Source of the DNA: Arthrobacter sp. SLBN-112
GTDB lineage: Bacteria; Actinomycetota; Actinomycetes; Actinomycetales; Micrococcaceae
DNA: 64,000 nucleotides
Reading direction: 5' to 3'
Assembly (NCBI RefSeq): GCF_030944625.1
Contig: NZ_JAUSXY010000001.1
Span: forward strand, 1,736,001-1,800,000
The translations under genes and the position numbers were made by a program. Under the pieces are notes generated by a model. That model searched no databases. It saw only the letters and a program-made list of their open reading frames with translations, and was not told the DNA's origin. Shown here piece after piece: positions 1,938-7,625 of the stretch (the first letter of the stretch is position 1; each line of letters starts with the position of its first letter).

Positions 1938-3815
1938 ATGGACCAGCGGAGCACCACGGCCACAGAAGTCCAGGGTTCCACGCGCTGGCCCACCATCGCC
2001 AAGGACGTGGCCGCCTTCCCGGTGCCGCCCAACATGCCGGACTATGAGGCTGCCAGGCGGGACTTCAGCTGGGACCAGGCGCGGCAGGCACTGGCCGGGC
2101 TGCCCGGCGGGCGCGGGCTGAACATCGCCTATGAGGCGGTGGACCGCCACGTGGCAGAAGGCCGCGGCGGCAAGGAAGCCCTGCGCTTCATCAAGGCCGA
2201 CGGCGGTACCCGGTCCCTGGACTACGGTGACCTTGCGGAGCAGTCCGGCAGGTTCGCGGCAGCGCTCCGGACGTTGGGGTTGGGGCGCGGCGAGCGGGTC
2301 TTCTCCCTCCTGGGCCGCAGCCCCGAGCTGTATGTCGCCGTGCTGGGCACCTTCAAGAACGGCAGCGTCTTTTGCCCGCTCTTTTCCGCTTTTGGTCCAG
2401 AACCCGTCCGGCAGCGGCTGCACCTCGGCGCGGGCCGCGCCCTGGTCACCACCAGGGCGCTGTACCGCAAGAAGGTCGCGCCGGTGCGGGACAGCCTTCC
2501 CGAGCTCCGCCACATCCTGCTGGTGGACGCGGACGGCAACCCCGAACCGGGAACCCTGGATCTGGCCCGCCTCCTGGCGCAGGCCCCGGATCCGGATCAG
2601 GGGCAGCCTCCCGGGCAGGACATCGAGGACACCCAGCCGGAGGACATGGCCCTGCTGCACTTCACCAGCGGAACCACCGGCACCCCCAAGGGCGCCATCC
2701 ACGTCCATGACGCCGTCGCCGCCCACTACGCCACCGGCCGGTTAGCCCTGGACCTGCACCAGGATGACATCTATTGGTGCACCGCCGATCCGGGCTGGGT
2801 GACCGGCACGTCCTACGGCATCATCGCCCCCCTGGTCCACGGGGTCACCGCCATCGTCGATGAGGAGGAACTCGACGCCGACCGCTGGTACCGGATCCTT
2901 GCGGACCAGCACGTCACGGTCTGGTACACCGCCCCCACCGCATTGCGGATGCTGATGAAGGCAGGTGCTGAGCGTGCCGCGGGCCATGACCTCTCCGCGC
3001 TGCGCTTCATCGCCAGCGTGGGGGAGCCGCTGAACCCGGAGGCCGTGGTGTGGGGCCAGGAGGTCCTGGGCCTGCCGGTGCATGACAACTGGTGGCAGAC
3101 CGAGACCGGCGGCATCATGATCGCCAACTACCCGGCCATGGACATCCGCCCCGGCTCCATGGGCCGGCCGCTGCCCGGCATCGAAGCGGCCCTGGTGGCC
3201 CGGGACGCCGACGGCAAACCCGTCCTCCGGGACGGTGAAGCCGTGCTGGTCACCGAGCCCGGCGCCATGGGCGAGCTGGCCCTGCGCCCCGGCTGGCCGT
3301 CCATGTTCCGCGGCTACCTCAACGAGGAGGAGCGGTACCGGCGCTGCTTCGCGGGAGGCTGGTACCTCACCGGGGACCTGGCAAAGCGCGACGCCGACGG
3401 CTACTTCTGGTTCGTCGGCCGCGGCGACGACGTCATCAAGTCCTCCGGCCACCTGATTGGCCCGTTCGAAGTGGAAAGCTGCCTCATGGAGCACCCGGCG
3501 GTGGCCGAAGCCGGCGTGATCGGAGTGCCCGACCCCGTGGCGGGCGAGGTGGTCAAGGCCTTCGTGGAACTCAAGCCGGGCAACCAGCCCAGCGAGGAGC
3601 TGCAGCTGGACATCATCGGCTTCGCCCGGAAACGGCTGGGTGCTGCCGTGGCTCCCCGGCTGCTGGACTTCACCACCACGCTGCCCAAGACCCGCAGCGG
3701 AAAGATCCTGCGCCGGCTCCTGAAAGCCCGCGAGCTGGGACTGCCCGAAGGCGACACCTCAACCCTGGAGGCCCCGGCCGGACCGGCGCCGGGCCTCGGC
3801 AAGGAGCAGCCATGA
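1938..3815 (+). CDS. acsA: Acetyl-CoA synthetase-like AMP-forming ligase
   Basis: About 625 aa. Two ATGs lie in tandem (1935 and 1938); the second is better spaced from AAAGGAG. The ANL signature [11 protein letters not shown] lies near residue 245, followed by an aromatic-rich acyl pocket (WWQTETGG) and [12 protein letters not shown]-terminal [11 protein letters not shown] near residue 588 carries the conserved catalytic lysine, which is the usual acetylation site. It should activate acetate or another short acid to the acyl-AMP and then to a thioester. It lies just upstream of E1 alpha (stop and start overlap at 3812-3815), in one operon with an acyl carrier protein. The final acceptor could therefore be CoA or the ACP; the sequence does not decide. 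Confidence 0.88.
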
Positions 3816-4849
3816 GCACCGTGCGGAACCAGGGCGTCCCGGACCAGGAACACGCCCTCCACCTGTTGCGGCAAATGCTGCGGGTGCGCCGGCTCGAGGA
3901 GAAATGCATCGAGCTGTACAGCGCCGCCAAGATCCGCGGCTTCCTGCACGTCTACATCGGCGAAGAAGCCGTGGCCGCCGGAGTGATGGAAACCCTGGCA
4001 CCGGATGACGCGGTGGTGGCCACCTACCGCGAGCACGGGCACGCCCTGTTGCGCGGCGTCTCGGCCGGAGCCATCCTCGCCGAAATGTACGGCCACGCCG
4101 AGGGCTGCTGCCGCGGCCGCGGCGGCTCCATGCATCTTTTCGACGCGGACACCCGCTTCTACGGCGGAAACGCGATCGTGGCCGGCGGCCTGCCCCTCGC
4201 CGTCGGCCTGGCGCTCGCGGACCGGATGGCCGGGCGCCAGCGCGTGACCGTCTGCTTCTTCGGCGAAGGCGCCGTGGCCGAAGGCGAGTTCCACGAAAGC
4301 ATGAACCTGGCCGCCCTCTGGCAGCTCCCGGTGCTGTTCTGCTGCGAAAACAACCTTTACGCCATGGGAACCGCGCTGGGCCGCTCCGAATCCCAGACGG
4401 ACATCGCACTCAAGGCCGCCGGGTACGAAATCTCCGCGTGGGCCGTTGACGGGATGGACGTGCTCGCCGTCGAGGAAGCCGCGCGGCGGGCGGTGGATGC
4501 CGTCAGGTCCGGCGGCGGCCCGCACTTCCTGGAACTGCGCACCTACCGCTTCCGCGCCCACTCCATGTTCGATCCCGAGCTGTACCGGGAGAAAACCGAG
4601 GTGAGCCGCTGGATGGAACGGGACCCCATCAGCCTGCTGCAGGGCACCATGCAGGCCGCGGGACAGCTGCCGGAAGACACCTGGGCCACGCTGACGGCGG
4701 ACGTGGATGCGGAGATCAGCACCGCCGTCGGATTCGCCGAGAACGGCACGCCGGAACCGGTGTCCGAACTCATGCGGTTTGTCTACAGCGACCGGGCAGA
4801 GCACACCGGCGCCGGTGACGGGGCCGGGAAAGAGGGGGCAGCAGGATGA
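3812..4849 (+). CDS. 2-oxoacid dehydrogenase E1 component, alpha subunit
   Basis: 345 aa thiamine-diphosphate enzyme subunit. The start at 3812 has AAGGAG five bases upstream and overlaps the ligase stop. The N-terminal part has [11 protein letters not shown] and the substrate-loop region [11 protein letters not shown]. The ThDP/Mg motif begins [13 protein letters not shown] and ends with the CENN pair, matching the GDG-x(24-27)-NN pattern with one D-to-E change. Length and motif order match E1 alpha of pyruvate, acetoin or branched-chain complexes, which decarboxylate a 2-oxoacid and pass the acyl group to lipoyl-E2. Substrate cannot be assigned from sequence alone. ATGA at 4846-4849 couples it to the beta subunit. 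Confidence 0.9.
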
Positions 4850-5826
4850 AAACCACCTACCGGGAAGCCATGCGCGCGGCCCTCCGCGACGCCATGCAGC
4901 GGGACGAGCGCGTGTTCCTCATGGGCGAGGACGTGGGCCGGTACGGCGGCAGCTTCGCCGTGAGCCTGGGCCTGCTGGAGGAATTCGGGCCGGAACGGAT
5001 CCGGGACACCCCGCTCTCCGAATCCGGCTTCGTCGGTGCGGGAATCGGCGCGGCGCTGGGCGGAATGCGTCCCGTCGTCGAAATCATGACCGTCAACTTC
5101 AGCCTGCTGGCCCTGGACCAGATCATCAACAATGCGGCCACCCTGCTGCACATGTCCGGCGGCCAGTTCAACGTGCCCATCGTCATCAGGATGACCACCG
5201 GTGCCGGCCGCCAGCTCGGCGCCCAGCACTCGCACAGCCTGGAAGGCTGGTACGCGCACATCCCGGGCCTGCGCATCCTGGCCCCCGCCACCCTGGCGGA
5301 CGCCCGCGGCATGCTCTGGACCGCGTTGCAGGACCCGGACCCGGTGCTGATCTTCGAACACGGCTCGCTGTACAACGTGGCCGGGGAGCTCGACGACGAC
5401 GCCGGCGCCGTGGAGATCGACAAGGCAGCGGTGGTGCGCAGCGGGGACGGCCTGACGCTCATCACCTACGGCGGCACGCTGCCCATGGTGCTGGAGGCCG
5501 CGGAGCAGCTGGCCGCCGAGGGCATCGAGGCGGACGTGATCGACCTGCGGACCCTCCGGCCGCTGGATGAGCACACCATCCTGGACAGCGTGGCCAGGAC
5601 CCACCGGGCCGTGGTGGTGGACGAGGGCTGGCGCAGCGGCAGCATCTCGGCGGAGATCGCCGCGCGGATCTGCGAGCAGGCCTTCTTCGACCTGGACGCC
5701 CCGGTGGAACGGGTGTGCAGCCTGGAGGTGCCCGTCCCGTACGCCAAGCATTTGGAACAGGCGGCCCTGCCGTCGGTGGAGCGGGTCGTGGCCGCCGCGC
5801 GGAGGGCTGTGGGGACCAATGGCTGA
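4846..5826 (+). CDS. 2-oxoacid dehydrogenase E1 component, beta subunit
   Basis: 326 aa transketolase-type pyrimidine-binding subunit. [10 protein letters not shown] near residue 26, the [14 protein letters not shown] block, and [22 protein letters not shown] (with the conserved H-S-x-x-x-x-x-W) are typical of E1 beta. The C-terminal half ([27 protein letters not shown]) is the transketolase C domain. It forms the alpha2beta2 E1 heterotetramer with the upstream subunit and supplies the glutamate that activates ThDP. It overlaps E1 alpha by four bases and E2 by eight bases (5819-5826), which implies co-translation in fixed ratio. Confidence 0.92.
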
Positions 5827-7354: not shown

Positions 7355-7382
7355 CTACTGGACCCGTAAACGAGGAGGAGCC

Positions 7383-7625
7383 GTGAACGAACAGGACGCG
7401 CGCCAGGCGGTGGAGGCGGCGATCGGGAAAGTAGCACCCGACGTCGAGCCCGAGGACCTGGCACCCGGGGCGCGGCTGCGCCAGGACTTGGAACTGGACT
7501 CGCTGGACTTCCTCCGCCTGGTGGAAGTCGTCGCCGAATCGACGGGGGTGGACATCCCTGAGGCGGACTACCCGGCCGTGGCCACCGTGGACGGGCTGGT
7601 CAGCTACGTCGCCGGGCACGGATAG
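7383..7625 (+). CDS. Free-standing acyl carrier protein
   Basis: 80 aa with a GTG start and the strong Shine-Dalgarno GAGGAGGAG just upstream. The core LELDSLDFLRLVE is the phosphopantetheine attachment site, with the serine at residue 40 in a D-S-L context. Low pI and a predicted four-helix size match ACPs. It is the last gene of the ligase-E1-E2 operon, 28 bases after E2. Housekeeping AcpP normally sits with fab genes, so this is a dedicated carrier. Its place next to an acyl ligase and an acyltransferase suggests it carries the product of one or both. The 3' neighbour is convergent. Confidence 0.9.
   Translation: MNEQDARQAVEAAIGKVAPDVEPEDLAPGARLRQDLELDSLDFLRLVEVVAESTGVDIPEADYPAVATVDGLVSYVAGHG

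What the first reader, a model, noticed from the sequence alone, without database searches (positions are those of the whole stretch)
1938..7625. A 2-oxoacid dehydrogenase operon with its own acyl carrier protein and acyl ligase
Seen: ligase, E1 alpha, E1 beta, E2 and a free ACP in one tightly overlapping operon, without E3 and without fatty-acid or polyketide genes. Known: E2 normally loads CoA, while ACPs serve synthases. Inferred: the complex may deliver an acyl group made from a 2-oxoacid, or from a free acid via the ligase, to the ACP instead of CoA. I recall similar gene sets in distant bacteria but know of no assigned function. This is my best candidate for an undescribed system.
Basis: partly seen in the sequence, partly recalled or inferred. 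Interest (0 to 1): 0.75.

Follow-up and report, generated by a model that had tools for sequence, protein, structure and literature searches.

The report
Pyruvate complex with its own ACP
A five-gene bacterial operon pairs a pyruvate-dehydrogenase-like enzyme complex and an acetate ligase with a private acyl carrier protein; the same set recurs in distant bacteria, often near stress and low-oxygen genes, and its function has not been tested.

Summary
The window, from a Pseudarthrobacter-like actinobacterium, carries acetate--CoA ligase, E1alpha, E1beta, E2 and ACP at 1935-7625. The set is not unique to the strain. In 43 loci chosen as complete enough to compare (Arthrobacter relatives, unnamed Actinomycetota, plasmids of Alpha-, Beta- and Gammaproteobacteria and Actinomycetota) gene order is the same, and in 42 the ACP follows E2 within about 60 bases. 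Damaged or partial sets also exist. Twenty control E1 loci show no ACP. E1beta and E2 each form one fully supported clade. Lipoyl lysine, E2 histidine, ACP serine and the ligase's acetate-pocket tryptophan are kept, so the machine looks active and acetyl is the likely group. Eight of 11 annotated plasmid loci have universal stress or Hsp20 genes nearby; some loci carry FNR- or OsdR-like sites, but the window's own upstream region does not. A precedent in print, QncN/L/M and scleric-acid SclQ1-4, loads a C2 unit onto an ACP with an E1/E2-type set. Best reading: a stress/low-oxygen pyruvate module whose E2 delivers acetyl to its own ACP. That transfer is inferred, not shown. New variant of a known kind.

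The parts
1935..3815 (+). AcsA-type acetate--CoA ligase (626 aa)
   Evidence: NF003313 above its cut-off; nearest solved relative acetyl-coenzyme A synthetase 9g79, E 1.5e-166; acetate-pocket Trp and catalytic Lys kept in 43 of 43 loci (roles of these residues recalled)
3812..4849 (+). E1 alpha, ThDP-dependent pyruvate-dehydrogenase type (345 aa)
   Evidence: PF00676 270 bits; TIGR03182 above cut-off
4846..5826 (+). E1 beta (326 aa)
   Evidence: PF02779 + PF02780; NF006667 above cut-off; 33 system members form one clade, SH-aLRT 100
5819..7354 (+). E2: one lipoyl domain (K42), two E3-binding-type stretches, catalytic domain with DHRVSDG (511 aa)
   Evidence: Pfam; K42 and H486 kept in 43 of 43, D490 in 40 of 43 loci; one clade, SH-aLRT 100
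7383..7625 (+). dedicated acyl carrier protein, GTG start (80 aa), serine 40 in DSLD
   Evidence: PF00550 30.7 bits against 20.8; D39-S40 invariant in 26 of 26 aligned; DS[LMI][DE] in 42 of 42
585..1916 (+). erythromycin-esterase-like gene just upstream (start codon inferred), 18 bases before the ligase; possibly co-transcribed
   Evidence: PF05139 384 bits; relatives lie near the operon in some other loci
1..588 (+). 3' end of a phosphoribosyltransferase-dienelactone hydrolase fusion gene that begins outside the window (L099 13240-14589)
   Evidence: PF00156 + PF01738

Best explanation
This is a horizontally mobile, stress/low-oxygen-associated pyruvate-processing module. E1 decarboxylates pyruvate and puts the acetyl group on the lipoyl arm of E2 (established chemistry of the families; substrate inferred from family models). 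E2 then passes the acetyl group to the phosphopantetheine arm of the operon's own ACP, instead of or besides CoA (inferred). A lipoamide dehydrogenase encoded elsewhere reoxidises the lipoyl arm (inferred). The acetate ligase works on the same two-carbon group at the other end, either turning acetyl thioester into acetate or recapturing acetate (inferred). The likely purpose is to handle pyruvate-derived acetyl when oxygen or energy is short, apart from the housekeeping CoA-linked pathway (inferred from gene neighbours and some regulator-like sites).
For: Order ligase-E1a-E1b-E2-(ACP) kept in 43 of 43 compared loci; ACP within about 60 bases of E2 (between aligned ends) in 42 of 43. E1beta identity has a gap: plasmids, 30 records at 64.7% or more, next 55.2%; 296 Actinomycetota genomes, 9 hits at 67% or more, next 59%. 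ACP on the high side: 18 of 18 opened plasmid records (of those 30), 8 of 9 phylum hits, 10 of 10 further loci of family f6, 11 of 11 in the sampled host family. Low side: none in 20 control loci searched with four ACP queries. E1beta and E2 each one clade, support 100. ThDP, lipoyl, E2 and ACP residues kept. Acetyl: NF003313 and TIGR03182, acetate-pocket Trp 43 of 43 (role recalled). Setting: universal stress or Hsp20 genes annotated in 8 of 11 annotated system plasmid loci and 0 of 3 annotated controls; resemblance to lxa (PMC6127331 section 7) and OsdR (PMC5069765 section 7) regions; FNR-like sites upstream in 4 of 13 proteobacterial loci, reached by 0 of 300 random-window sets. Precedent: QncN/L/M and SclQ1-4 (passages).
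Against: No result shows acyl transfer to the ACP. The E2 catalytic residues are those of ordinary CoA-using E2s. The ligase keeps, in 43 of 43, the Arg that aligns (by recall) with a CoA-contacting Arg of Salmonella Acs, so it probably still uses CoA. One full locus (L085) has no ACP behind E2, and relatives of the ACP also occur without the operon: L058 and L130, and a broken one in the host, L057. D490 is replaced in 3 of 43. Three of 11 annotated system plasmid loci (L076, L077, L081) have no universal stress or Hsp20 gene in the stretch opened. The window's own upstream region shows no FNR- or DosR-type match within the limits, and its OsdR-type score is unremarkable (57 of 400 random windows as good). 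The 300-base limit of the FNR test was set after a first look. The neighbour survey used queries I picked, so it is not an enrichment test.
Confidence: 0.45

Rival explanations
1. It is an ordinary CoA-dependent pyruvate dehydrogenase isoform for stress conditions, paired with an acetate ligase; the ACP has a separate, unknown role and never receives acetyl from E2.
For: E2 catalytic residues are canonical; the ligase keeps a CoA-type Arg (role recalled); E1alpha and E1beta pass pyruvate dehydrogenase models and E2 is nearest to such models though below their cut-offs; relatives of the ACP occur without the operon.
Against: The ACP is tied to this E2 clade (42 of 43) and absent from 20 control E1 loci; an unrelated role would not predict such a bond across two phyla.
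Confidence: 0.27
2. The ACP is not an acyl acceptor but a supply or assembly partner, for example carrying octanoate for lipoylation of this E2, or a structural subunit.
For: Lipoylation starts from octanoyl-ACP (recalled); the E2 needs lipoyl (K42 in 43 of 43).
Against: I saw no lipA or lipB among the annotated neighbours opened. The title and abstract start of PMC9307952 (search listing only) say LipB mainly recognises the C8-phosphopantetheine arm and binds the ACP weakly. Control E2 loci, which also need lipoyl, have no ACP.
Confidence: 0.1
3. The complex makes a different acyl-ACP, such as glycolyl-ACP from a sugar phosphate or another 2-oxoacid, as a building block for a product made elsewhere, as in the QncN/L/M cassettes.
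For: Same combination of ThDP enzyme, E2-like part and ACP in QncN/L/M and SclQ1-4 (PMC6335953 passages); KAS III-like genes lie in the same stretch as the operon in L067 and L098.
Against: E1alpha is E1_dh (270 bits) and not transketolase (19.4 bits, cut-off 22); it passes the pyruvate model; the companion ligase is an acetate ligase with the acetate-pocket Trp in 43 of 43; I saw no NRPS or polyketide synthase in the annotated stretches opened.
Confidence: 0.12

Closest known systems
QncN/QncL/QncM and SclQ1-4 glycolic-acid cassettes (quinocarcin type, scleric acid)
   Same: ThDP enzyme in two parts, a lipoyl plus acyltransferase E2-like part and a free ACP, which together make and attach a C2 unit (PMC6335953 passages).
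   Different: There the donor is proposed to be a ketose phosphate and the product a peptide building block; here E1 is the pyruvate type and an acetate ligase heads the operon. Sequences of those proteins were not compared here.
Pyruvate dehydrogenase complex (E1alpha/E1beta type)
   Same: E1alpha, E1beta and E2 domains and active residues; TIGR03182 above cut-off.
   Different: No E3 in the operon; two E3-binding-type stretches in the window's E2; a dedicated ACP and ligase; separate E1beta and E2 clades.
AcsA acetate--CoA ligase (PDB 9g79; Bacillus subtilis type by recall)
   Same: Family, acetate-pocket Trp, catalytic Lys.
   Different: Fixed as the first gene of this operon.
Low-oxygen-activated (lxa) locus of Burkholderia cenocepacia and OsdR/DevR regulons
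   Same: Neighbours of the same kinds: universal stress proteins, heat shock and BON proteins, phosphate acetyl/butyryl transferase (PMC6127331 section 7); universal stress proteins, pyruvate phosphate dikinase, nitroreductase (PMC5069765 section 7; PMC6302529 section 16 part 1).
   Different: In what I read these papers do not name this operon; word searches of their main texts found no 'acyl carrier'. The primary lxa paper is not held.
Acetoin dehydrogenase operons with acoE acetyl-CoA synthetase (recalled)
   Same: E1/E2 plus an acetyl-CoA synthetase.
   Different: No ACP is known there (recalled); the acetoin E2 model scores far lower here (79.6 against a 307 cut-off).

Membership tests
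2-oxoacid dehydrogenase complex, pyruvate type | E1alpha/E1beta with ThDP and active-site residues | tested here: met
   TIGR03182 and NF006667 above cut-off; four E1 residues checked kept in 43 of 43, a fifth is Glu in 22 and Asp in 21
2-oxoacid dehydrogenase complex, pyruvate type | E2 with lipoyl Lys and catalytic His | tested here: met
   43 of 43 each
2-oxoacid dehydrogenase complex, pyruvate type | E3 encoded with the complex | tested here: not met
   none in the operon; TIGR01350 match over cut-off elsewhere in the genome. Many complexes share E3 (recalled), so this is not excluding
2-oxoacid dehydrogenase complex, pyruvate type | acyl acceptor is CoA | not testable with these tools
   needs purified proteins
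QncN/L/M-type C2-unit cassette | E1-like + E2-like + free ACP encoded together | tested here: met
   definition from PMC6335953 passages
QncN/L/M-type C2-unit cassette | transketolase-like ketose-phosphate donor enzyme | tested here: inconclusive
   here E1_dh 270 bits, transketolase 19.4 bits below cut-off; QncN itself was not scored
QncN/L/M-type C2-unit cassette | peptide synthetase partner that uses the ACP-bound unit | tested here: not met
   PF00550 finds only three places in the genome: this ACP, one 0.9 Mb away and a 1416-aa frame 1.8 Mb away. A distant partner is not excluded
lxa / OsdR-type low-oxygen island | stress and low-oxygen-type neighbours | tested here: inconclusive
   8 of 11 annotated system plasmid loci have universal stress or Hsp20 genes; in the window's locus only the erythromycin-esterase-like, PRTase-DLH and SPW genes
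lxa / OsdR-type low-oxygen island | FNR or OsdR/DosR binding sites upstream | tested here: inconclusive
   4 of 13 proteobacterial loci FNR-like; strong OsdR-like sites in L082, L085 and L097, 3 of 18 loci; none convincing in the window

The most novel reading that the evidence does not exclude
The five proteins form a closed, CoA-independent line from pyruvate to acetate for survival at low oxygen: E2 hands acetyl to the ACP, and the acetate ligase runs backwards on acetyl-ACP with AMP and pyrophosphate, making acetate and ATP. PEP synthase, found near a part of the loci, would add a second AMP-using, ATP-making step. This would be a new ACP-based way of conserving energy.
Probability: 0.12. 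Interest if true: 0.88.

Novelty: new variant of a known kind. Interest (0 to 1): 0.63.

Why it matters
A five-gene block kept in the same order across two phyla, found on plasmids and often near low-oxygen or stress genes, points to a selected function in central carbon metabolism that no paper I found describes. If E2 feeds acetyl to an ACP, then acyl carrier proteins serve primary energy metabolism and not only synthesis. The system is small and is present in ordinary soil bacteria, so it can be tested directly.

Tried and rejected
Considered and rejected: (1) chance neighbourhood or a strain-specific arrangement, ruled out by conservation. (2) A natural-product cluster: no synthase among the neighbours scanned in the window; KAS III-like genes only in L067 and L098 of the loci looked at. 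(3) Acetoin dehydrogenase: model score far below cut-off. (4) A second operon in the host: the second ACP hit at G000:C1:3220677-3220909 is split over two frames; the same arrangement in L130 has an MGDG-synthase-like glycosyltransferase gene beside it. (5) OsdR-type control of the window's own operon: no good site. (6) E2 residues special to the system were listed, but without coordinates they could not be placed on the active site, so nothing is built on them.

Searches that led nowhere: papers with combined terms (no paper; listings in which I saw nothing on this operon); primary lxa paper not held; word searches of PMC9104464, PMC3966863, PMC3759415, PMC11841059, PMC13411936 and PMC5934665 gave no passage on this operon. 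Structure prediction was not run, because sequence already fixes the folds and no complex can be modelled. Chromosomes of other phyla could not be sampled.

Rows left out of the 43: 10 of the 16 close relatives (L005, L007-L013, L017, L019), of which L005, L007, L017 and L019 are broken or partial and the others complete; the partial loci L059, L060, L065 and L129; 10 of the 11 host-family genomes, judged by coordinates only; and 12 of the 30 plasmid records, not opened.
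Full report
What is there. Five genes on the + strand: acetate--CoA ligase 1935-3815, E1alpha 3812-4849, E1beta 4846-5826, E2 5819-7354, ACP 7383-7625. The first four overlap by 4, 4 and 8 bases; the ACP begins 28 bases after E2. The curated models say more: the ligase is above the cut-off of an acetate--CoA ligase equivalog, E1alpha above that of the pyruvate dehydrogenase E1 alpha equivalog, and E2 is closest to pyruvate-type E2s but below their cut-offs. The E2 has one lipoyl domain and two E3-binding-type stretches. The host is an Arthrobacter/Pseudarthrobacter relative, inferred from the closest loci. 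Elsewhere it has a lipoamide dehydrogenase, two phosphopantetheinyl transferases, six other E2-type domains and three weaker ligase matches.

Conservation among near relatives. A scan of genome contigs with the E2 gave 16 loci of Arthrobacter and Pseudarthrobacter; all 16 have an ACP after E2. Not all are whole: L007 has only a ligase fragment, L019 a split ligase and shortened E1beta and E2, L017 a shortened E2 and neither ligase nor E1 in the stretch held, and L005 broken-up matches for ligase and E1. In a sample of 149 genomes of the host's family, 11 have an E1beta at E 1e-120 or better, and in 11 of 11 an ACP hit lies on the same contig within about 2.5 kb. Two further genomes (G491, G420) have an ACP hit without such an E1beta: G491 has E2 + ACP without E1 or ligase in the 16 kb taken (L129), and G420's is weak. 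The operon is thus patchy even in its own family.

Conservation far away. In 296 Actinomycetota genomes the E1beta identities fall into two groups: 9 hits at 67% or more, then 59% and below. Eight of the 9 have an ACP-profile hit next to them; the ninth (L085) has ligase, E1 and E2 but no ACP match behind E2. I compared the ACP places by eye with the 141 listed lower-identity E1beta places: none lies within 10 kb. The tool's list was cut off, and some contigs are short. Three more places hold E2 and ACP with E1 missing or off the contig (L059, L060, L065), and one genome has such an ACP alone (L058). In family f6, 13 of 121 genomes have an E1beta at 1e-120; the 10 not already held were fetched, and 10 of 10 have ligase-E1a-E1b-E2-ACP. 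On plasmids, 527 records match E1beta; 30 are at 64.7% identity or more, the next at 55.2%. One ACP query found 11 records, all among those 30. I opened 18 of the 30; 18 of 18 have the full set in order. They are from Azospirillum, Tropicibacter, Sulfitobacter, Sinorhizobium, Methylocystis, Ciceribacter, Leisingera (2), Cupriavidus (2), Burkholderia, Paraburkholderia, Photobacterium, Rhodococcus (2), Streptomyces (2) and Embleya. In the Tropicibacter, Sulfitobacter and Leisingera records E1alpha and E1beta are annotated as one gene. In 20 control E1 loci (4 plasmid records, 16 genome stretches) no ACP was found with four queries at E 0.01; ligase matches in 3 of 20 are at 27-29% identity.

One system. 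The 33 system members used form one side of a branch with SH-aLRT 100 in both the E1beta tree (20 outsiders) and the E2 catalytic-domain tree (22 outsiders) (quick method, some long control branches). Inside the clade the four burkholderial members group with Rhodococcus and two family-f6 loci in both trees (support 97 for E2; 82 for E1beta, there with Methylocystis). With the many plasmid copies this suggests that the block has moved as a unit between phyla.

Is it active? The 43 loci are the window and 6 of the 16 close relatives, 8 other actinobacterial, 18 plasmid and 10 family-f6 loci; the rows left out are listed under Tried and rejected. Order is kept in 43; lipoyl Lys 43, E2 His 43, E2 Asp 40, four E1 residues 43, ligase Trp, Lys and Arg 43, ACP serine 42 of 42. 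The E2 Asp is His in Sinorhizobium L079 and Gly in Leisingera L083 and L089. The roles of these residues are recalled family knowledge. The Trp is the residue that limits acetyl-CoA synthetases to acetate (recalled), so with the pyruvate-type E1 the shared group is most likely acetyl.

Setting. Of 11 annotated system plasmid loci, 8 have universal stress or Hsp20 genes in the stretch opened (L078, L079, L080, L082, L083, L084, L089, L098) and 3 do not (L076, L077, L081); 0 of 3 annotated control loci do. Other neighbours seen in some of them: BON, CBS, DUF2267, DUF3775, nicotinate phosphoribosyltransferase, an erythromycin-esterase-like gene, Crp/Fnr regulators, PEP synthase and phosphofructokinase, and in Sulfitobacter FabI, MaoC-Pta and acetate kinase. 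Rhodococcus DK17 has a GAF sensor kinase and response regulator nearby. A homology survey with 61 proteins that I chose found PEP synthase in 8 of 34 system loci, one of them the query's own source, and in 2 of 10 more. The queries came from these neighbourhoods, so this describes and does not prove enrichment; among five control loci only a P-type ATPase fragment and weak AMP-ligase matches appeared. Two unnamed actinobacterial loci (L066, L067) have a nickel-dependent hydrogenase gene in the stretch; L067 also has a wax ester synthase, KAS III-like genes and a universal stress protein. In the window the upstream genes are a phosphoribosyltransferase-hydrolase fusion and an erythromycin-esterase-like gene, with an SPW-repeat gene before them. 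The relatives' setting resembles the lxa locus (PMC6127331, section 7 read) and the OsdR regulon (PMC5069765, section 7 read; PMC6302529, section 16 part 1 read); in what I read none names this operon.

Regulator-like sites. FNR-like sites with at most one mismatch lie within 300 bases upstream of the ligase in 4 of 13 proteobacterial loci; 0 of 300 sets of random windows reach 4, mean 0.43. The 300-base limit was set after a first look at 500 bases. OsdR-type sites score strongly in 3 of 18 actinobacterial loci (L082, L085, L097); the combined probability over 19 regions is only 0.03, and the window's own region is unremarkable.

Mechanism. E1 and E2 chemistry follows from the families. What is inferred is the last step. 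A dedicated ACP, adjacent to E2 in 42 of 43 loci and found in none of 20 controls, with an invariant attachment serine, is best explained as the acceptor of E2's acyl group. A precedent exists: QncN/L/M, and by homology SclQ1-4, combine ThDP enzyme, lipoyl-acyltransferase and ACP to make and attach a two-carbon unit (PMC6335953, passages only; the naphthyridinomycin NapB/NapD case is recalled). Against an exclusive ACP route stand the canonical E2 catalytic residues and the CoA-type Arg of the ligase (role recalled). How the ligase fits in is open; it could recapture acetate or, run backwards, make ATP from the acetyl thioester.

Novelty. E1/E2 sets feeding an ACP are known in natural-product clusters; the pyruvate-type, ligase-linked form near stress genes is not described in anything I found (open-licence papers only). 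I file it as a new variant of a known kind.

Noticed in passing
L057 6678-6907 (host genome G000:C1:3220677-3220909): A second copy of the ACP in the host, split over two reading frames, with an Hsp20-like match nearby; an uninterrupted copy in the same surroundings exists in L130, beside an MGDG-synthase-like glycosyltransferase gene.
   Followed up: partly
window 9013-12983: Sulfur-type gene group: metallo-beta-lactamase plus rhodanese protein (Pfam), further rhodanese-like ORFs, a TauE-like permease and a small ORF at 12585 that looks like a CsoR/CstR-type regulator (all but the first judged by eye).
   Followed up: no
L067 and L066: A nickel-dependent hydrogenase gene in the same stretch as the operon; in L067 also a wax ester synthase and two KAS III-like genes.
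   Followed up: partly
L090 14756-17590: A 944-residue protein with PP-binding, AMP-binding and acyltransferase domains about 0.4 kb downstream of the operon's ACP.
   Followed up: no
L129 6846-8366 (G491): A locus of the host's family with E2 and ACP but no E1 or ligase in the 16 kb taken, next to a PRTase-DLH gene: perhaps a remnant.
   Followed up: no
L076, L077, L083, L089: E1alpha and E1beta annotated as one gene in Rhodobacterales plasmids.
   Followed up: no
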